31,885 nucleotides of DNA, taken from positions 1-31,885 of IMG/VR virus record IMGVR_UViG_3300043775_004202; one strand, written 5' to 3'. Shown here in pieces: positions 11,392 through 19,594 of the stretch. Position 1 is the stretch's first letter. The number at the start of each line of letters is the position of its first letter. The notes beneath the pieces were generated by a model. That model searched no databases, was not told the origin of the DNA, and worked only from the letters and a program-made list of their open reading frames with translations. The translations under genes and the position numbers were made by a program. Source of the DNA: a virus.

Positions 11392-11422
11392 AGTCACAAA
11401 ATAGAAAGTGAAACAAAATAAT

Positions 11423-12913
11423 ATGTCAAACATACGTCCTTCACAGTCTTACATCGATGAAAATCGTGCTAAACTCCTTGTTGAGAAGTGGGCTCCAGTA
11501 TTGGATTACACCTCTAACAACGTTCGCGCTATTGAAGATGATCACACACGCTTAAACACTGCTATCCTTCTTGAGAATCAAGAAAAGTATTGCTTTGAGG
11601 CGTCAAACACTGCTGGTGGTTCCACTGGTGTCTTCGGCTCAGCCATTAATAATGGCGGCTACGGCAATCAGTTCCCATCGCAGAATGACGGCGCTTATGC
11701 GCAAGGTGATTCCCGTCTTCCTAAGATCCTCATCCCGATGATTAGACGTACATTCCCTGAGTTGATCACCAACGAAATCGTTGGCGTTCAGCCAATGAGT
11801 GGTCCTGTAGGTCTTGCTTTCGCTCTCCGTTATAAGTACGAAGGTTCAGCACTTGGTGCAACTAATGGCAAGGGTCTTGATGGCTCACTCGCCAATGGTT
11901 CATTTGCTGGTGGTCCTCAGAATCAGTCTTCTGGTTCAGAGTTAGGCTATCAGTATCTCGATACTCGCTTTACAGGTACGTCCGCAGGGGCGTTATCCGG
12001 TAATAACGATTTCGCGATGATCGCATCCGATCAAGGTGTTGCTCAACTTCTCAGTCAGTTCGAATTAACAAGTCAGATCCCACAGATCGTTGTTTCTTTC
12101 GAGAAGACAGCAGTTGAAGCAGGAACCCGTCGTCTCGCAGCTCGTTGGTCAGTTGAGCTCGAGCAGGATCTTAAGAACATGAATGGTATCGATATCGATA
12201 CTGAACTCACAAACGCTATGTCGTATGAGTTACAGGCCGAAATCGACCGTGAAATGATCATCAGAATGATTCAAACAGCTCTCAATGCCGGTTTCGGCAC
12301 TGGGTTCTCAGTTTGGTCACCTGCTTCAGCAGACGGCCGCTGGCTCGTTGAGCGCAACCGCGACTTCTATCAGAGACTCATCATTGAGGCTAACCGCATT
12401 GCCGTCCGCAACCGCCGCGGCTCTGCTAACTTCATCGTTGCTACACCTCGCGTGTGCGCAATCCTTGAAATGTTACCAGAGTTCCAGTGGGTACCGGTCC
12501 AAGGTAATGTGAATACACAGCCCGTTGGTGTTGCGAAAGTTGGTACACTTGCTGGTCGCTTTAACGTATACCGCGATACACGCACCGAAGCTCAATTTGA
12601 AGCTTCTAGAGGTGGCAACTACGGTGGCAGCGCCGGGTTCCCCGGTGGTACTACACGTACTGCACGCCTCGAATACGCGCTTCTCGGTTACAAGGGACCT
12701 GAATTCTATGACACCGGTATCATCTACTGCCCTTACATCCCTGTAATGGTACAGAGAACCATCGGTCCTAACGATTTCTCACCAAGAGTTGGTTTATTGA
12801 CACGCTACGGCGTCGTTGATAACATCTTTGGTGCAAATCTTTATTACCATGTCATTATTCTTCAAGGTCTTGGAGTGGCTTTTGAGCCAGGTAAAACTTC
12901 CGTGTACTTCTAA
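11423..12913 (+). CDS. 23: Major capsid protein, gp23-like
   Basis: The product is 496 residues from ATG 11423; an in-frame GTG at 11408 would add five. T4 gp23 has 521. Family signatures are KLLVEKWAPVLDY near the N-terminus, TAILLENQEKY, the block RRTFPELITNEIVGVQPMSG, the ARWSVELEQDLKNMNGIDID helix, and NFIVATPRVCAILEMLPEFQ. A gp21-type L-L-E site lies in ILLENQEKY, where the propeptide may be cut. This gene uses many more C-ending codons than its neighbours, which fits strong expression. A strong terminator follows. Identification is firm; the exact start and cleavage site are inferred. Confidence 0.96.
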   Translation: MSNIRPSQSYIDENRAKLLVEKWAPVLDYTSNNVRAIEDDHTRLNTAILLENQEKYCFEASNTAGGSTGVFGSAINNGGYGNQFPSQNDGAYAQGDSRLPKILIPMIRRTFPELITNEIVGVQPMSGPVGLAFALRYKYEGSALGATNGKGLDGSLANGSFAGGPQNQSSGSELGYQYLDTRFTGTSAGALSGNNDFAMIASDQGVAQLLSQFELTSQIPQIVVSFEKTAVEAGTRRLAARWSVELEQDLKNMNGIDIDTELTNAMSYELQAEIDREMIIRMIQTALNAGFGTGFSVWSPASADGRWLVERNRDFYQRLIIEANRIAVRNRRGSANFIVATPRVCAILEMLPEFQWVPVQGNVNTQPVGVAKVGTLAGRFNVYRDTRTEAQFEASRGGNYGGSAGFPGGTTRTARLEYALLGYKGPEFYDTGIIYCPYIPVMVQRTIGPNDFSPRVGLLTRYGVVDNIFGANLYYHVIILQGLGVAFEPGKTSVYF

Positions 12914-12986: not shown

Positions 12987-13889
12987 TTATTGTCTAAGGG
13001 TCTTTGTGAACTGAACCGATGTATCGATCAAGCTTGAATCGATTAAATGCGGATGACTTGCACGTGTAGGGTTAATATCAATACCACCTCTTCTTACATA
13101 GAGACATGTTACGCAGAGCTCGAGCGGTGAGAAAAGATCCCATATTCTCTTATAAATTGTCTCGCAGATTTCTTCATGAAAGTGACACTCGTCTCTAAAC
13201 GAGACAATATATTTCAATAGAGATTCTTTAGATATATCATACTCACCCTTATAATAGACATAGACATCACCCCAATCCGGTTGCGATGTAACCCTGCAAT
13301 TACTCTTTAAGAGGCTTGAGTGGTATTTTACTTCATAGACTGTTTCAGTCTTTGCACCCTTGAGTATGGAGGGTGTCTCTTTGTATATAGAGCATTTGAG
13401 TAACGTAGTATCAAGAGTATTCTCGATCGTAAGATATTCCTGACCAAACGGAGTGTTTACATTTTTAACATCCTTGCAGAGAAAGATGTGTGCCTTCACT
13501 TCAGTTTCTAATAATTGCGAGAGATCTGTCTCAACAACATTCCTTACAGTAAGAATAATATCGTCGATATTGCCTGGATACTGCTGCATGTTAAATGTGT
13601 TAAAATACAGCTTAATTGATTTTGACTCTACGATATACTTGCTTGAAGCAGGATACATAACCTTCACGATACCAGTGAGCGGGGTACCGTTCTCACATAA
13701 GCATGAAAATTCATAAGCATTCCAGATATCATAGCCTATGAAAGGCAAATTATCATCATCAATGTTGAGATGTTTACGATTTGATTGACGTGGTTCTCTT
13801 ACAAGGAGAGAAGGGTCATATGTAGATTTATATTCACTACTCTTTCCTAAGTGTACTGATATGTGTGTGTTGTCTAGTTCTGTTAGCAT
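12987..13889 (-). CDS. queF: NADPH-dependent preQ0 reductase QueF (long form)
   Basis: QueF reduces the nitrile 7-cyano-7-deazaguanine (preQ0) to the aminomethyl compound preQ1. The 300-residue length fits the long, two-domain form (E. coli about 282). N-terminal LGKSSEYKSTYDPSLLVREP is the family start. IVESKSIKLYFNTFN carries E88. SNCRVTSQPDWGDV carries the nucleophile C198 and D205, and FRDECHFHEEIC carries H238-E239. These match the E. coli set C190, D197, E89 and H229. A Pro usually following the Cys is Arg here. It is the last gene of the minus-strand modification operon and overlaps the kinase gene by seven bases. In a phage it most likely feeds DNA modification rather than tRNA queuosine. 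Confidence 0.93.
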   Translation of the reverse strand: MLTELDNTHISVHLGKSSEYKSTYDPSLLVREPRQSNRKHLNIDDDNLPFIGYDIWNAYEFSCLCENGTPLTGIVKVMYPASSKYIVESKSIKLYFNTFNMQQYPGNIDDIILTVRNVVETDLSQLLETEVKAHIFLCKDVKNVNTPFGQEYLTIENTLDTTLLKCSIYKETPSILKGAKTETVYEVKYHSSLLKSNCRVTSQPDWGDVYVYYKGEYDISKESLLKYIVSFRDECHFHEEICETIYKRIWDLFSPLELCVTCLYVRRGGIDINPTRASHPHLIDSSLIDTSVQFTKTLRQ

Positions 13890-14437
13890 AAAGTTTCTTT
13901 AATTAAATTTAATCGTTCATCAACTGTACCCTTTAAGATAATTAATTTATCTTTCGTCATATCTTTATATGTCTCAAAAAGAAGATCGAACGTATTAATA
14001 ATTTTATCGCGAAATTCATTATTCACGCTACGCTCACCATCATCAATCAAAGGTACATCGCCTGGCCATGTATAAAATATCTTATCGATGCGAGTTATGA
14101 GTATGTCGAATACATTACGCGCATATTCAGCTACCCAGCGTGAGACCTTATTCTCTACAGCGAGATACGTTGTATACACTAAGCCATCTACAATACATCT
14201 ATCCATAATAATACCCTTTTTATTATCTGACATCTGCTTGAATGTATTTTGAATATGCTGATTAATAATCAGCAGTTGTGTTATGTCATTACCACCTTCA
14301 TTAATATTAACATTATACGTACGTTTTACAAGTCTCGTAACCTCGTCTACAAACTCGTAATCTGGATACAGCTCTTTGCACTTTGTTAATAATGTAGTCT
14401 TACCGGTACTCTGTGCCCCTGTAAACGATATAATCAT
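13883..14437 (-). CDS. P-loop kinase / NadR-like AAA_28 ATPase
   Basis: The product is 184 residues and a compact P-loop NTPase. Walker A is GAQSTGKT at residues 7-14. FVDEVTRLV at about 34-42 and MDRCIVDGLVYTTYL at about 79-93 match the acidic and DR-type motifs of NadR-like kinases and nucleoside kinases. A LID-like ERSVNNEFRD segment follows at about 136-145. NadR-type enzymes phosphorylate ribosylnicotinamide, and related proteins act on nucleosides. The gene is locked in the operon with queF (seven-base overlap), so a substrate linked to the 7-deazaguanine pathway is possible; an NAD salvage role is the alternative. The fold is certain, the substrate unknown. Confidence 0.8.
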   Translation of the reverse strand: MIISFTGAQSTGKTTLLTKCKELYPDYEFVDEVTRLVKRTYNVNINEGGNDITQLLIINQHIQNTFKQMSDNKKGIIMDRCIVDGLVYTTYLAVENKVSRWVAEYARNVFDILITRIDKIFYTWPGDVPLIDDGERSVNNEFRDKIINTFDLLFETYKDMTKDKLIILKGTVDERLNLIKETLC

Positions 14438-14473
14438 ACAACGATATTATATAAAAAAATATGAATGTCAAAC

Positions 14474-14821
14474 TTATTTTGCCCATTTTTTATTATTGAC
14501 AATTTCAGCAATAATACAATAAACTGAGGTGTCAAGAAAAGTATCAAGAACTGATTCGTTTGCAGTCTCACTCAACCCTCTACGCAGTACAATATTAATA
14601 AGGCGTTGAAGCTTATCATTCAACCGTACGACGATAGCTGATATAGATGCTTTTCTTTCCTCGAAAGTTTCTAGCGTACTACCAAGCGATATGTTGCCTG
14701 GACCGTAGTCAAGCTGTTTCTTACAAAAAGTAAGATATTGATACTTTTGTATTCGCTTAAACTCCTGACATGTTTCAGGGTACTTTGTTTCTATTATACT
14801 AACGATTTCATCATCACACAT
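14474..14821 (-). CDS. Nmad1/DUF1599-like nucleotide-modification-associated protein
   Basis: The product is 115 residues and all-helical. The FCKKQLDYGPGNISLG stretch, a central RLNDKLQRLINIVLRRG helix and a C-terminal LDTFLDTSVYCIIAEIV helix follow the pattern of the nucleotide modification associated domain 1 (DUF1599). There, a YGxxN segment precedes a DK-RL helix and an acidic D-x2-D helix. Domains of this kind were named for their repeated occurrence near phage DNA-modification genes; their biochemistry is not settled. The gene overlaps the formyltransferase stop by eight bases and ends 36 bases before the kinase gene, so it belongs to the same operon. Confidence 0.68.
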   Translation of the reverse strand: MCDDEIVSIIETKYPETCQEFKRIQKYQYLTFCKKQLDYGPGNISLGSTLETFEERKASISAIVVRLNDKLQRLINIVLRRGLSETANESVLDTFLDTSVYCIIAEIVNNKKWAK

Positions 14822-15359
14822 ATTTGTTTAAAAAATGACACCACATCACTGAAGCGAGAGCATGCAAATCAACATATAAGCGATCGAGATCAGCATGCTG
14901 CGAGTTAATTTCATGCTCAAGCATTATTTCACCACTATCTACCTCCGGTGTTACACGATGTATCACACAGCCAATAGTTGGATACTTTTTATGAAAAGCT
15001 CTATCTTGCGGATCTTTACCTTTCAGATCCGGGTATTTTGTAATCAGACCGGGATGTAGATTATACATCTCATATTTTTCACATATTTCTTTAGGTATAA
15101 TACGAAGATACCCGTGCAAAGTAATGATGGGATTCTTATATTTTTCGAGAACAGAAAAATAATCATCAACGGTCGGTTTTGCCGGGAGTTGAATAATGCT
15201 CGTTGATTGCTTTTTTACTTGTTGTAATACCCATGAGTTAACCTTATCAAGGTTACGTTTATTATGTACTATGCACGTTGGTACAGATTTATGAAATACA
15301 GAGATGTTAGCTATCTCTGTACCGGTTTGTGAAAAAAATGCTACCCAGTCTCGTTTCAT
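14814..15359 (-). CDS. dpdN: PurN-like formyltransferase, candidate dPreQ1 formyltransferase (DpdN)
   Basis: The product is 181 residues and carries the folate-dependent formyltransferase core. YNLHPGLITKYPDLKG gives the catalytic N100-x-H102 pair, and PEVDSGEIML gives D141, matching the Asn/His/Asp triad of PurN. IITLHGYLRIIP at about 78-89 matches the segment before it. 10-formyl-tetrahydrofolate would be the donor. Published work on phage 7-deazaguanines named a dPreQ1 formyltransferase, DpdN, that yields (formylamino)methyl-7-deazaguanine. Location directly after the transglycosylase gene (ATGA overlap) and in one operon with queF makes that role the best fit. A purine-synthesis or sugar-amine formyltransferase is the alternative, less likely in this context. 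Confidence 0.75.
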   Translation of the reverse strand: MKRDWVAFFSQTGTEIANISVFHKSVPTCIVHNKRNLDKVNSWVLQQVKKQSTSIIQLPAKPTVDDYFSVLEKYKNPIITLHGYLRIIPKEICEKYEMYNLHPGLITKYPDLKGKDPQDRAFHKKYPTIGCVIHRVTPEVDSGEIMLEHEINSQHADLDRLYVDLHALASVMWCHFLNKYV

Positions 15360-16174
15360 CGACGTATAATCCTCTTAAACATATTAGTGTTGTATTCAAG
15401 CAATGCAAGACCATCATCATTAAATTCATACTCAATCAGGTCTGCAAGCTTAGTATGAGGCTTTGTATTGAGACCGTAGTCAGCATCGTATTTCATTCCG
15501 TGAATCGCGGCAACAACAGGATTGCTCGTATCACAACTTACAATATTATGAATATTGTTATCAACATAGTACCTAAATTCTCTAGCAAGAGAACAGCCGA
15601 GTAAGTGATGCGGCTTATTCCAATTCCAAACACCATCATCGATAAGCTGTCTAATTAAGCGCTCACGACCAGAGCAGAACCGTTCAAGTTGATTATTGCC
15701 TTCACCGGTAACGTGATAGTAGCTAAAGTCAAAACTAATAGCAATCATGTCAGCACTATCTGACATAAACTTATAACATGTCTTAATATCATTCCACGTC
15801 TTGCCTTGAATAGCACCAATTGTTTTTGTATTAAAGCTATTCTTGATATTATTAATCATCCCGTTTTTTTGCCATTCAATAAAGCTATGAATTGTACCGT
15901 TTGTATCTTCGAGAACATCAGGAATAATAAACATATTCGGCTGTAGCCACATTACTTCCTTATAGAAGAGATCCTTATCAAACGCCGTGCCAAGCTCAAA
16001 GATAGAATTGTCAAGCAATACTTCACGGTTATAGTGTTCACGCGCCGCTTTAAAATAATGTCTATATTCAGGAAACTTATCAAATAAATGTACCAAAGCA
16101 TAATCAAAATCATTATATGCTTGTGATTCTCTCAGTATAGAGATAGGGGATTCATGTGAAACTTTCATTAGCAT
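15356..16174 (-). CDS. dpdA: DpdA-like DNA guanine transglycosylase
   Basis: The product is 272 residues and TGT-like, predicted to swap guanine in DNA for a 7-deazaguanine base. LDNSIFELG (D55) takes the place of the first catalytic Asp region of tRNA-guanine transglycosylases, and IVSCDTSNPV (D215) that of the second. FIIPDVLED at about 82-90, IGAIQGKTW at about 119-127, a DMIAISFDF strand and HHLLGCSLAREF fit strands and loops of the TIM barrel. It lacks the C-terminal zinc site and RNA-binding domains of bacterial Tgt, as expected for phage DpdA. First gene of the operon; a second Met at residue 3 may be the real start. Family assigned from motif order; subfamily not determinable here. 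Confidence 0.78.
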   Translation of the reverse strand: MLMKVSHESPISILRESQAYNDFDYALVHLFDKFPEYRHYFKAAREHYNREVLLDNSIFELGTAFDKDLFYKEVMWLQPNMFIIPDVLEDTNGTIHSFIEWQKNGMINNIKNSFNTKTIGAIQGKTWNDIKTCYKFMSDSADMIAISFDFSYYHVTGEGNNQLERFCSGRERLIRQLIDDGVWNWNKPHHLLGCSLAREFRYYVDNNIHNIVSCDTSNPVVAAIHGMKYDADYGLNTKPHTKLADLIEYEFNDDGLALLEYNTNMFKRIIRR

Positions 16175-16210: not shown

Positions 16211-19174
16211 ATGGAATATCCGAAGTATCATGGCAATTATCTTGGCATTGTCGTTCAGAATAACGACCCGCTACATAGAGGTAGAGTAAAAGTCTTTGTA
16301 CCACATATTTCACCAACAGTTTATAAATCATGGGTCGAGGATAAAAAAGATAAACGGTTTAGATTTATGGGGTCAAATATTGAAAGTGATCTAACACAAA
16401 TTATTACTGATCTTAAGGAAATATTGCCGTGGGCTGAAGTTGCAACACCGCTAGCCGGTGAGTCAAGCAGCGGTAGATATAATGCACAATCAAACCATGC
16501 AACAACAAGTGATAGTAGTAATATTAGTTTTACAGAAGCATATTCATCAGATGTAGGTGCCGGTAACCAAAATATCGATAACGTCGGAGAGAAACCCGGT
16601 AATGTTTTTGACATGATGAATTATAGGCTCTGTGATGCTTTTAATGATCCTGCTGCTACTAATATTAACTACGTTAATAAGTTAAGTTATAATTATGTTC
16701 CAGAGTGTTATAGTAATAGTGCTAAAGGTGCCTTCCCGGTACTTAGCGTAGGAGCGCATGTCTGGATATTTTTTAATAGCGGTGATCCGCTCAAGCCTGT
16801 CATTTTTGCTTCTTCTTTTGGTAGTCATGAATGGTGTAGTATTTTTGATTCTACAAGCGCTTCACCGGGTATGGATTACCCCGGTAAATATGAAAATACA
16901 ATCGGTGGTAAAGACATCAACACCGATACATATAGAAACAAATACATTATAAACCAGAAAGGTGGTACATTAGCATTCGTTAATACAGATAACAGGGAGA
17001 TGCTTAAGCTGACGCATTTCTCCGGGTCTTTTAAAGAGTTTAATAATATGGCTAATATTGAGTTAGCCACAAATAATGATCAGAAACTTGTTTTAAATGA
17101 TTCATTTGATACTGTACGTGGTATGCGTAATGTGTTTACACAGCGTGATTTTGATAATGTTGTGCGCGGTGATCATTATAGAAAAGTTGGAAACCTCGAA
17201 GCAAGTTTATATGAGAAGTGGAAAGAGTTATGGGCACCTATTGCAGATATAAAACAATTATTTGATGTTCAGAGAACATTTGGTGTACAGGGAGAACTGG
17301 GTGCGGCTGGGTCATTTATTAAGCTTAATGGATCTGGTCAAACACAAAGCGGAATGCCGGCCATGTGTCCAGTTTGTACTGCGAATATAAGACTGGATAT
17401 GGCAGTCAATAATACGTTTGATCCTCCGGGCTTTAAAAAGACTTCAAAGCCATCCACCGCGACACATGAAGATGGCGACGGTGCCGGGGCGCAGATGATT
17501 GACGCTGAAGGTGTAGGTTATCAAGTAACATATCAAGACGGTAGACCAGCAGGTCCTATTAACCTGTTTCTATTAATGAAAAATGACGGTACATATACCG
17601 ATGTGTTTGGTAACCCGCTCGTACAGCCACCTGGTGAGATTGGTGGTATAAAATGCCCGTCGTGTAATAATTCTTTAGGTGGTGGTAGCATCACTTCAGG
17701 CCCGGGGTTCAGTAAAAGTTCTTTTGCAGGTATATGGACTCCTGAACCACAAAAGTTATTACTACCGACTATGATCGCTGCAGTTATGCCTGAGCTTGCA
17801 AAAGTTGAAGCGCAAATGGGTCTCGGTGGTAGTGAGATAGTCGAAATAACAAAGCACAAAGTTGAAACAATAGGTATGGTTATGAATGACTTCGGTGCTG
17901 TACGCGTAGATCCGCAAGGTAAAATGGAACCCGGATACGTACTACCGTCACAATTTAGTACAATTGTCGTTAACACACCATCACCGCTTGTTGAGCAAGT
18001 ACATGTTGATGACTTACCGGGTGGTACCTATACACTCAATGTGTGTAACCGCTACAGCATACTTGTCGGTGCAGGTGGTGTTAACCTTAAGTCATACGGT
18101 GTTATTAATATATCAGGTGCTATGGCTAACATTGCAGGTGAGCAAGTTAACATTGGCAGTGCTAATGAGGTAAATATTGACGGCGGTAAGCGTACATCTA
18201 TTGTGGGCGACATTGTCAGCATCAGGCAGCGTAACGGCGAGCAAGTTATAATTGATAGTGGTCTAGGCATTAACGGTAACGTTATTATTCGCGGCGGTCT
18301 TTATGTCGAAGGTGATACCGGGTTACAATCGATGACGTGTGTATCACAAAAAACAACAACTGACCCCGTGAACGCTTATGGTGGCGGTAGACAAGGCCTC
18401 GTCGGTGGTACAATGCTTACATGTGATTATTCACATAATATGGATGAAACTACCGGTGAATTAATGCCTGGTAAGGGGACTGCCAAGACATACCTTGGTT
18501 ATACTGACTACAATAAAGTTGCAGGTTTTATTGATAAGGACACTGTTATCGGTACATTAATGGAAGGAACAATAATTACCGGTGACTTTAAAGGTTTAAG
18601 CTTAGCAATCGGTGGTATACCGACATTAATTGATATAACAGGTGCTACGTTTACCGTGACATCAATAACACCTTCACCTTTAGCTGTTGCCGCTGGTGTT
18701 CAGGGTTGTATCGCTGCCGTTGACAATCTTACACAGGTAAAAACGCTCATGCAAGCAGGAGATCCGATGGCTGATGCAGATGCACTACCGGGTGGTGGAT
18801 GTTATATAAGAGGTACAAATGATGGTGTTACTGTACCTTCAAAGCCTAAAAATTTATCTCTTCGCGGGCAACCATATACTGATGTAATTGCAGCTGTTGA
18901 AGAAGCGAAAGCTATATATAAAGCTCCCGGTGCACTCTATGCACCAGGCTTTATTGTGGGTAACGGTTGCCATTCATCATATACACAAACAGCAACACAT
19001 GTTATGACATTTGAAGAACCGGCTGTAAATAAAGTTGCCACATGTTCAGCGGTGAGAAAAATACATGGGAAAAATATAAATGTTCTGGTTAGTGCCAAGT
19101 CCATTGGCGATTATCATAATATTACTGATGAAATAGTAGACCCACCAGATCTACCTACTACCGGTCTTGTATAA
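16211..19174 (+). CDS. 5: Baseplate central hub/spike protein, gp5-like, without lysozyme domain
   Basis: The product is 987 residues. The N-terminal OB-fold is evident: NYLGIVVQNNDPLHRGRVKV, then LPWAEVATPLAGES, and the later VGAHVWIFFNSGDPLKPVIF. A beta-prism-like repetitive segment (about 600-720: SYGVINISGAMANIAGEQVN, then NIDGGKRTSIVGDIVSIRQ) corresponds to the T4 needle. T4 gp5 has 575 residues with a lysozyme domain; I see no phage-lysozyme catalytic motif here. CPVC at 386-389 and CPSC at 482-485 form a zinc ribbon split by about 92 residues. The gene is co-oriented with the head genes but separated from them by the modification operon, and its stop abuts the next converging stop. Confidence 0.85.
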   Translation: MEYPKYHGNYLGIVVQNNDPLHRGRVKVFVPHISPTVYKSWVEDKKDKRFRFMGSNIESDLTQIITDLKEILPWAEVATPLAGESSSGRYNAQSNHATTSDSSNISFTEAYSSDVGAGNQNIDNVGEKPGNVFDMMNYRLCDAFNDPAATNINYVNKLSYNYVPECYSNSAKGAFPVLSVGAHVWIFFNSGDPLKPVIFASSFGSHEWCSIFDSTSASPGMDYPGKYENTIGGKDINTDTYRNKYIINQKGGTLAFVNTDNREMLKLTHFSGSFKEFNNMANIELATNNDQKLVLNDSFDTVRGMRNVFTQRDFDNVVRGDHYRKVGNLEASLYEKWKELWAPIADIKQLFDVQRTFGVQGELGAAGSFIKLNGSGQTQSGMPAMCPVCTANIRLDMAVNNTFDPPGFKKTSKPSTATHEDGDGAGAQMIDAEGVGYQVTYQDGRPAGPINLFLLMKNDGTYTDVFGNPLVQPPGEIGGIKCPSCNNSLGGGSITSGPGFSKSSFAGIWTPEPQKLLLPTMIAAVMPELAKVEAQMGLGGSEIVEITKHKVETIGMVMNDFGAVRVDPQGKMEPGYVLPSQFSTIVVNTPSPLVEQVHVDDLPGGTYTLNVCNRYSILVGAGGVNLKSYGVINISGAMANIAGEQVNIGSANEVNIDGGKRTSIVGDIVSIRQRNGEQVIIDSGLGINGNVIIRGGLYVEGDTGLQSMTCVSQKTTTDPVNAYGGGRQGLVGGTMLTCDYSHNMDETTGELMPGKGTAKTYLGYTDYNKVAGFIDKDTVIGTLMEGTIITGDFKGLSLAIGGIPTLIDITGATFTVTSITPSPLAVAAGVQGCIAAVDNLTQVKTLMQAGDPMADADALPGGGCYIRGTNDGVTVPSKPKNLSLRGQPYTDVIAAVEEAKAIYKAPGALYAPGFIVGNGCHSSYTQTATHVMTFEEPAVNKVATCSAVRKIHGKNINVLVSAKSIGDYHNITDEIVDPPDLPTTGLV

Positions 19175-19594
19175 TTATTCCGGCCAAATATACTCTAGAT
19201 CAGCCGGCACATCTGGCCAAATAATAGAATAAAACTCTGGTTTTTTCTGAACGAGCATTGACTTGTGTGAAAGGTGAAAATTATCATTACCAAGCCAAGA
19301 AGGCATTTCTGTAGTTTCCGACGGCACAAAATGAGCTTTAATTTTATCCAAGCAGGTATCTTTATAACCACGATCACGCCATGCCTTGCAGATTTGAACA
19401 CCATATTCAACGAGAGCATTAGGCGTCTTCGACCACATTTTTGTACATGGGTGATTTGACCAGCCTCGGCCTTGTGTAATACCGCGAATTTTGTTGAGCA
19501 TTTGCAGTACCTCAACACGCTGCTTTCCGAGACGCTTTTGGTCAAGAACTGAGCCAGATTTATAAAAATCAGAATACGGTAAGAATGTTTGCAT
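19175..19594 (-). CDS. MSMEG_6728-type / pyrimidine-dimer glycosylase-like protein
   Basis: The product is 139 residues. The opening MQTFLPYSDFYKSGSVLD, then KRLGKQRVEVLQML, GWSNHPCTKMW and ICKAWRDRGYKDTC closely follow a family of small bacterial and phage proteins annotated as MSMEG_6728-like or related to pyrimidine dimer DNA glycosylases (Pyr_excise). The N-terminal Thr-Phe-Leu and the conserved Lys, Arg and His residues fit a DNA lesion-recognition role, but enzymatic activity for this family is not firmly shown. It converges on the hub gene with no gap between stop codons. Upstream is a strong hairpin, so it may depend on its own promoter. Confidence 0.75.
   Translation of the reverse strand: MQTFLPYSDFYKSGSVLDQKRLGKQRVEVLQMLNKIRGITQGRGWSNHPCTKMWSKTPNALVEYGVQICKAWRDRGYKDTCLDKIKAHFVPSETTEMPSWLGNDNFHLSHKSMLVQKKPEFYSIIWPDVPADLEYIWPE

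What the first reader, a model, noticed from the sequence alone, without database searches (positions are those of the whole stretch)
12987..16174. Five-gene operon that looks like a full preQ1-formylation DNA hypermodification cassette
Seen: overlapping minus-strand genes for a TGT/DpdA-fold protein (D55, D215), a PurN-like formyltransferase (N100, H102, D141), an Nmad1-like protein, a P-loop kinase and a long QueF (C198, D205, H238). Known: DpdA enzymes insert 7-deazaguanines into phage DNA, QueF makes preQ1, and a formyltransferase (DpdN) has been proposed to make (formylamino)methyl-7-deazaguanine. Inference: this T4-like phage carries formylated dPreQ1, placed between capsid and baseplate genes.
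Basis: partly seen in the sequence, partly recalled or inferred. Interest (0 to 1): 0.9.

Follow-up and report, generated by a model that had tools for sequence, protein, structure and literature searches.

The report
Phage operon replacing DNA guanines
This uncultured T4-like virus carries a compact five-gene operon that most likely swaps the guanines of its DNA for a formyl-capped look-alike base; the chemistry is already known from a cultured relative, but the operon also carries, in a gene order shared by scores of related viruses, nucleotide-handling genes whose role is unexplained.

Summary
The five minus-strand genes at 12987-16174 are real. (1) The 272-aa product folds as a tRNA-guanine transglycosylase (all 50 listed PDB matches are TGT, best E 1.6e-9) and keeps the TGT catalytic motifs. 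Its named relatives are the annotated DpdA of Flavobacterium phage immuto (47%) and its homologue in Campylobacter firehammerviruses (43%), phages whose guanine is completely replaced. (2) The formyltransferase keeps Asn100/His102/Asp141; (3) QueF keeps Cys198/Asp205/His238. Immuto carries dpdA-formyltransferase-kinase-queF in the same order. The chemistry itself is untested here. Beyond that reading: in 86 unique loci the order DpdA-[formyltransferase]-[GMP reductase]-[Nmad1 or dATP/dGTP diphosphohydrolase]-kinase-[QueF] holds, except that GMP reductase lies upstream of dpdA in 7. The kinase (79/86) is the constant partner, not the formyltransferase (62/86). Nmad1 and the diphosphohydrolase share one slot and never co-occur. 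This suggests that bulk guanine replacement is coupled to control or recycling of guanine nucleotides. The window lacks FolE, QueD and QueC; long relatives carry them elsewhere. Verdict: a new member of a known kind, with an unassigned, testable nucleotide module.

The parts
15356..16174 (-). dpdA (DpdA3-like DNA-guanine transglycosylase), 272 aa
   Evidence: AlphaFold2 model pLDDT 92.6; 50 of 50 listed PDB matches are TGT, best E 1.6e-9; 47% to immuto DpdA, 43% to CP220 gp056; D55, D86, Q123, G193, D215 in the same order as the E. coli TGT motifs, no CxCxxC zinc motif; phrog_19058 E 1e-54, annotated unknown function
14814..15359 (-). PurN-type formyltransferase (DpdN candidate), 181 aa; overlaps dpdA by 4 bp
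   Evidence: PF00551 E 6e-13; 43% to the immuto homologue next to its dpdA; N100, H102, D141 invariant in 39 relatives; far below the PurN equivalog cut-off, 46 of 150 bits
14474..14821 (-). Nmad1/DUF1599-like all-helical protein, 115 aa; role unassigned, possibly a dNTP diphosphohydrolase by position
   Evidence: DUF1599 hit in 17 of 28 relatives, best E 2e-4; phrog_1485 E 2e-12; its slot is taken by PF18909 dATP/dGTP diphosphohydrolase in 12 loci, never both; AlphaFold model has no significant PDB match
13883..14437 (-). P-loop nucleotide-kinase-like protein (AAA_28), 184 aa; the most constant partner of this DpdA type
   Evidence: PF13521 E 3e-15; phrog_2107 'thymidylate kinase' E 3e-25; profile matches solved dTMP kinases (E 7e-5) and NadR; invariant G7, G12, K13, T15, R80, D84, D133, G134, R136; present in 79 of 86 loci, always on the dpdA strand
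12987..13889 (-). queF (7-cyano-7-deazaguanine reductase making preQ1), 300 aa; overlaps the kinase gene by 7 bp
   Evidence: PF14819 E 1e-31, PF14489 E 2e-20; TIGR03138 E 6e-78, 262 bits against cut-off 293; E88, C198, D205, H238, E239 invariant in 41 relatives
11408..12913 (+). flanking major capsid protein (gp23 type), converging on queF; neighbour, not part of the cassette
   Evidence: PF07068 E 5e-89; gp23 within 5.5 kb in 65 of 86 loci
16211..19174 (+). flanking baseplate OB/hub gene, divergent from dpdA; neighbour
   Evidence: PF04717 E 2e-9; phrog_430 E 9e-5

Best explanation
The operon makes and installs 7-(formylamino)methyl-7-deazaguanine (fdPreQ1) in the phage genome. preQ0 comes from FolE, QueD, QueE and QueC, encoded elsewhere in this phage lineage or by the host. 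QueF reduces preQ0 to preQ1. The DpdA3-type transglycosylase cuts guanine from the DNA strand through a covalent Asp215 intermediate, with Asp55 as acid/base, and puts the 7-deazaguanine in its place. The PurN-type enzyme formylates the aminomethyl group using 10-formyl-tetrahydrofolate. Because this DpdA type is tied to bulk guanine replacement, the accessory genes (kinase, Nmad1 or diphosphohydrolase, GMP reductase) probably manage the guanine-nucleotide pool during the exchange. SHOWN computationally: folds or families, catalytic residues, synteny. INFERRED: the product base, the order of the steps, bulk replacement. GUESSED: the substrates of the kinase and of Nmad1.
For: TGT fold with ordered TGT motifs. 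Nearest named relatives: immuto DpdA and firehammervirus CP220 gp056; firehammervirus DNA has complete dG replacement (stated in PMC10273834). Same gene order dpdA-FT-kinase-queF in immuto. Invariant catalytic residues of FT and QueF. Nested gene content: FT almost only with QueF (59 of 62 within 5.5 kb), and one operon order throughout. FolE, QueD and QueC in long relatives G001-G004 and G008. GMP reductase in 21 of 86 loci, a xanthine/guanine phosphoribosyltransferase-like gene near dpdA in immuto, and HD phosphohydrolase-kinase next to dpdA in CP220.
Against: No chemistry for this virus. The primary paper on fdPreQ1, DpdN and DpdA3 (NAR 2023, 10.1093/nar/gkad657) is not held, so the link from immuto-like genes to fdPreQ1 rests on memory plus a citation. 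DpdA has no sequence-level match to solved TGT and a non-significant HMM alignment to E. coli TGT. QueF falls under the NCBIfam cut-off, and phage QueF and QueF-L are hard to tell apart by sequence (PMC6884629). QueE in the relatives was only weakly detected. G006 (146.8 kb) shows no FolE, QueD or QueC, so some members must draw preQ0 from the host.
Confidence: 0.75

Rival explanations
1. Pool-level replacement: the transglycosylase (or the pathway around it) makes modified deoxynucleotides rather than editing finished DNA. Nmad1 or the diphosphohydrolase cuts dGTP to dGMP, the base is exchanged and formylated at monophosphate level, and the kinase rebuilds the di/triphosphate for polymerase, as T4 gp56/gp42/gp1 do for hydroxymethyl-dCMP.
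For: The kinase is the most constant partner of this DpdA type (79/86), and a different P-loop kinase sits beside dpdA in distant relatives L003 and L004. Nmad1 and PF18909 dATP/dGTP diphosphohydrolase share one slot and never co-occur; a PRA-PH gene near dpdA in immuto and an HD domain beside it in CP220. DpdA1 of 9g and Dp-1 have no adjacent kinase or hydrolase.
Against: Known TGT/DpdA enzymes act on polymers; from memory, dADG phosphates were looked for in firehammervirus infections and not seen (Crippen 2019). Nmad1 has no detectable relation to PF18909 by HMM or to solved NTP-pyrophosphatases by fold. On the tree each gene changes only 3-8 times, so co-occurrence rests on few events.
Confidence: 0.13
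2. Guanine recycling: exchange occurs in DNA, and kinase plus GMP reductase (or phosphoribosyltransferase) recycle the large amount of guanine set free back to nucleotides. This is an add-on to the best explanation, not an alternative base chemistry.
For: GMP reductase in 21 of 86 loci (19 of them with the full cassette), 14 of them inside the operon; xanthine/guanine phosphoribosyltransferase-like gene near dpdA in immuto. At 36.4% GC about 57,000 guanines per 157-kb genome would be released; with an assumed 100 genomes in 1 fL that is roughly 10 mM, far above guanine solubility (inference).
Against: No guanine phosphoribosyltransferase in this window; does not explain Nmad1 or a dNTP diphosphohydrolase.
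Confidence: 0.35
3. The genes serve queuosine in tRNA or general purine metabolism, not DNA modification (TGT-like protein modifies tRNA, PurN-like makes purines).
For: The fold is that of TGT; PurN-like genes occur as auxiliary genes in cyanophages.
Against: No zinc-binding CxCxxC motif of tRNA-TGT; FT scores 46 of the 150 bits required for PurN; nearest dpdA relatives are in phages with fully replaced guanine; no other purine-synthesis genes in the operon.
Confidence: 0.06
4. The kinase acts on the DNA base itself, like 5-hydroxymethyl-dU DNA kinase, building a further hypermodification on the base.
For: A P-loop kinase is conserved beside the transglycosylase.
Against: Neither fdPreQ1 nor ADG offers an obvious hydroxyl for phosphorylation; the kinase also occurs in loci without QueF and FT and in CP220.
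Confidence: 0.05

Closest known systems
dpdA-formyltransferase-kinase-queF locus of Flavobacterium phage vB_FspM_immuto_2-6A (NC_055915)
   Same: Same four genes in the same order; DpdA 47%, FT 43%, kinase 34% identical
   Different: No Nmad1 in the operon; FolE, QueD, QueE, a phosphoribosyltransferase and a PRA-PH gene lie close upstream; not inserted beside gp23 in the region shown
DpdA3-type system of Campylobacter firehammerviruses (CP220), dG fully replaced by a 7-deazaguanine derivative (dADG)
   Same: DpdA 43% identical; kinase next to dpdA (35% in CPt10/CP20, 32% in CP220); T4-like virion genes near by
   Different: No QueF and no formyltransferase near by; HD-phosphohydrolase-kinase fusion upstream of dpdA
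DpdA1 systems: Enterobacteria phage 9g (dG+), Streptococcus phage Dp-1 (dPreQ1)
   Same: 7-deazaguanine synthesis plus a TGT-like protein
   Different: Another DpdA subfamily (317 and 311 aa, different motifs), no adjacent kinase or nucleotide hydrolase, partial replacement (about 1.7% of G in Dp-1, PMC6884629)
T4 hydroxymethyl-dC pathway (gp56 dCTPase, gp42, gp1 kinase) and Z-genome pathway (PurZ, DatZ/MazZ)
   Same: Combination of a nucleotide hydrolase, a base-altering enzyme and a kinase associated with complete replacement of one base (from general knowledge)
   Different: The base-altering enzyme here is a transglycosylase; pool-level action is not shown

Membership tests
DpdA (DNA-guanine transglycosylase), DpdA3-like | TGT fold | tested here: met
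   All 50 listed PDB matches are TGT, E 1.6e-9 and weaker, probability 1.00, TM 0.62-0.70 by query, rmsd 6.5-7.4 A
DpdA (DNA-guanine transglycosylase), DpdA3-like | Nucleophile Asp, acid/base Asp and base-recognition motifs | tested here: met
   D55, D86, Q123, G193, D215 in the E. coli TGT order D89, D143, Q187, G245, D264; D55 and D215 invariant in 54. Read from motifs, not from a residue-level structural alignment
DpdA (DNA-guanine transglycosylase), DpdA3-like | Homology to the firehammervirus/immuto enzymes | tested here: met
   42-47% identity over more than 90% of the length
DpdA (DNA-guanine transglycosylase), DpdA3-like | Base exchange in DNA; full replacement of G | not testable with these tools
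   Needs LC-MS of virion DNA
DpdN (dPreQ1 formyltransferase) | Formyltransferase fold family with Asn-His-Asp catalytic triad | tested here: met
   PF00551 E 6e-13; N100/H102/D141 invariant in 39
DpdN (dPreQ1 formyltransferase) | Genetic link to dpdA and queF | tested here: met
   62 loci with FT, 59 of them with QueF within 5.5 kb; orthologue in immuto
DpdN (dPreQ1 formyltransferase) | Identity with the DpdN named in NAR 2023 | not tested
   Paper not held
QueF nitrile reductase | Cys, Asp, His, Glu active-site residues and full-length two-module arrangement | tested here: met
   PF14819 + PF14489; C198, D205, H238, E239, E88 invariant in 41
QueF nitrile reductase | NCBIfam equivalog cut-off TIGR03138 (293 bits) | tested here: not met
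   262 bits; so nitrile reductase versus QueF-L activity is not settled by the model
Purine PurN (GAR transformylase) | TIGR00639 equivalog cut-off | tested here: not met
   46 of 150 bits
Nmad1 (DUF1599) | Pfam PF07659 gathering score | tested here: inconclusive
   Window protein 14 of 25 bits; 17 of 28 relatives hit it at E up to 0.1, best 2e-4
All-alpha dNTP diphosphohydrolase | Detectable fold or profile similarity of Nmad1 | tested here: not met
   No significant Foldseek hit; hhalign to PF18909 members not above controls

The most novel reading that the evidence does not exclude
DpdA3-type cassettes are not pure post-replicative editing systems but nucleotide-pool systems. A dGTP-directed diphosphohydrolase (Nmad1 or PF18909), a base-exchanging transglycosylase and a dedicated deoxynucleotide kinase together starve replication of dGTP and feed it a formylated 7-deaza-dGTP, which explains complete guanine replacement. 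Nmad1, a family of unknown function, would then gain one.
Probability: 0.13. Interest if true: 0.85.

Novelty: new member of a known kind. Interest (0 to 1): 0.5.

Why it matters
If right, formyl-capped 7-deazaguanine DNA is common in uncultured T4-like phages: at least 589 DpdA relatives were found in one viral collection, and 62 of 86 checked loci carry the formyltransferase. Such DNA should resist many restriction enzymes. The conserved kinase, the interchangeable Nmad1/diphosphohydrolase slot and the GMP reductase turn an open question into direct tests: how a phage replaces every guanine, and where the released guanine goes. They also offer a first functional handle on the DUF1599/Nmad1 family.

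Tried and rejected
Sequence-level proof of the TGT family: no PDB sequence hit for the DpdA profile, no Pfam TGT hit, hhalign to E. coli TGT not significant; only the fold search settled it. Nmad1 as an all-alpha NTP-pyrophosphatase by fold or profile: no support; only the shared slot remains. Statistical independence of gene associations: the tree shows few gains and losses (Kin 3, FT 5, QueF 7, Nmad1 3, diphosphohydrolase 3, GMP reductase 8), so sign tests have no power and raw counts must not be read as independent trials. PF18909 is common in phages generally (706 records), so only its position, not its presence, is informative. Literature on fdPreQ1, DpdN and DpdA3: the key paper and the MMBR review are not held. 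PurN purine biosynthesis and tRNA-Q modification were considered and rejected as main function. PF18909 and PRA-PH elsewhere in the long relatives: only in G006 and immuto respectively.
Full report
OBSERVATION. The five minus-strand ORFs are at the stated coordinates and lie between a gp23 capsid gene (11408-12913) and a baseplate gene (16211-19174). Three of the four gene junctions overlap (4, 8 and 7 bp) and one has a 36-bp gap, which is typical of a co-translated operon. The record is a 31,885-base viral fragment with other T4-type genes: helicase, tail sheath stabilizer, portal, neck, head closure, prohead protease, tail fibre, hub lysozyme.

DpdA. No sequence library names the 272-aa protein: no Pfam TGT hit, PHROG 19058 'unknown', no PDB sequence hit. 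By tblastn it is 47% identical to the gene annotated DNA guanine transglycosylase in Flavobacterium phage immuto and 42-44% to a hypothetical protein of Campylobacter firehammerviruses. AlphaFold2 on 36 relatives gave pLDDT 92.6 and pTM 0.90. Foldseek returned only TGT among its 50 listed PDB matches (best E 1.6e-9, probability 1.00), although rmsd is high (6.5-7.4 A) and TM by query is 0.62-0.70. Motifs DNSIFE(55), PD(86), QG(123), HLLG(190-193), DTSNP(215) follow the order of E. coli TGT DSGGFQ(89), FDE(143), QG(187), YLMG(242-245), DCVMPT(264); the tRNA-TGT zinc motif CxCxxC is absent. The DpdA1 proteins of 9g and Dp-1 differ. I call it DpdA3-like because its relatives include the firehammervirus gene; the subfamily name itself is from memory of NAR 2023 (10.1093/nar/gkad657), which is not held but is cited in PMC12783734 as the source of further 7-deazaguanine derivatives. 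Complete dG replacement in firehammerviruses is stated in PMC10273834.

FORMYLTRANSFERASE AND QUEF. The 181-aa protein matches PF00551 (E 6e-13) but reaches only 46 of 150 bits for PurN. N100, H102 and D141 are invariant in 39 relatives, and its phage orthologue sits one small ORF downstream of immuto dpdA. QueF has both modules and invariant C198, D205, H238, E239, E88; it falls just under the NCBIfam cut-off (262 of 293 bits). PMC6884629 reports that QueF and QueF-L in phages are hard to separate by sequence, and that Dp-1 with such a gene carries dPreQ1.

SYNTENY. 120 unique DpdA loci were collected from IMG/VR, GTDB genomes and named phages; 86 hold at least 4.5 kb downstream. In these: kinase 79, QueF 71, formyltransferase 62, Nmad1 45, GMP reductase 21, PF18909-like diphosphohydrolase 12. 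The order is DpdA, FT, (GMP reductase), Nmad1 or diphosphohydrolase, Kin, QueF, with genes missing but not shuffled; the exception is that in 7 loci GMP reductase lies upstream of dpdA. The kinase is always on the dpdA strand. Nmad1 and the diphosphohydrolase never co-occur, and 56 of the 57 loci with either one carry the formyltransferase. The formyltransferase lacks a detected QueF within 5.5 kb in 3 of 62 loci; L042 does have QueF just beyond that distance. The DpdA tree puts these patterns in clades with only 3 to 8 changes per gene, so the associations rest on few evolutionary events. A gp23 gene lies within 5.5 kb in 65 of 86 loci, so the insertion place is conserved too.

REST OF THE PATHWAY. 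FolE, QueD and QueC are absent from the window but present, at distant places, in long relatives G001-G004 and G008, in immuto and in CP220; G006 (146.8 kb) has none of the three. QueE was sought with one divergent query and found only weakly. So the genomes, not the cassette, hold the full pathway, and some members must use host preQ0.

ACCESSORY GENES. The kinase is AAA_28, closest by profile to dTMP kinases and NadR. The distant DpdA homologues of Chryseobacterium phage MA9V-3 (L003) and Weizmannia phage Youna2 (L004) have other P-loop genes directly upstream of dpdA, whereas DpdA1 of 9g and Dp-1 has neither kinase nor hydrolase next to it. The slot between FT and kinase holds Nmad1 (DUF1599 supported in 17 of 28 relatives) or PF18909 dATP/dGTP diphosphohydrolase (E 8e-21). 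GMP reductase is identified by PRK05458 (339 of 344 bits). Near dpdA, immuto has a PRA-PH protein and a xanthine/guanine phosphoribosyltransferase-like protein; CP220 has an HD-kinase fusion directly upstream. Nmad1 could not be tied to any NTP-pyrophosphatase by fold or profile, so its role by substitution is only a lead.

MECHANISM. Best supported: preQ0 to preQ1 (QueF), exchange for guanine in DNA (DpdA3), formylation (FT), giving fdPreQ1. Shown: families, folds, residues, order. Inferred: product, direction, bulk replacement. Two add-on models for the accessory genes remain: recycling of released guanine, or pool-level replacement in the T4/Z-genome style. From memory, Crippen 2019 saw no dADG phosphates in firehammervirus infections, which favours exchange in DNA.

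VERDICT. This is a new member of the immuto-type system, most likely making fdPreQ1. What may be new is the constant kinase and the interchangeable nucleotide-hydrolase slot; whether the 2023 paper already notes them could not be checked.

Noticed in passing
window 19175-19594 (-): Pyrimidine dimer DNA glycosylase (PF03013, E 2e-21), a denV-like repair enzyme, on the minus strand next to the baseplate gene.
   Followed up: no
L015:9399-10358 and 20 other loci: GMP reductase (PRK05458, 339 bits) in 21 of 86 DpdA3 loci: 14 between formyltransferase and Nmad1, 7 upstream of dpdA.
   Followed up: partly
L046:9801-10175, L035:9586-9951: dATP/dGTP diphosphohydrolase (PF18909) occupying the Nmad1 slot.
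   Followed up: partly
L039 and L042, between DpdA and Nmad1; L036 and L038 after DpdA: Extra operon genes: ornithine cyclodeaminase family (PF02423, E 2e-70) and HIT protein (PF01230); a cupin-like protein after DpdA in L036 and L038 (sequence). Possible further tailoring enzymes.
   Followed up: no
L010, L014, L019, L021, L022, L025, L029, L032, L033: QueF in these otherwise syntenic cassettes scores only about 136-155 bits against the window QueF (others about 390), although all catalytic residues are kept: two QueF lineages share one slot.
   Followed up: no
L072 (Microcystis phage Mel-JY01) 12001-12345: Close Nmad1 homologue (47%) without an annotated dpdA in the displayed region, beside clamp-loader and SAM-synthetase genes and about 4 kb from an IMP dehydrogenase/GMP reductase gene.
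   Followed up: no
L002 6868-7899 (CP220 gp055): HD-phosphohydrolase fused to a P-loop kinase immediately upstream of the firehammervirus dpdA.
   Followed up: no
L170-L179: DpdA relatives in contigs binned to bacterial and archaeal genomes (Rhodobacteraceae, Flavobacteriaceae, Woesearchaeota and others); probably phage contigs or prophages.
   Followed up: no
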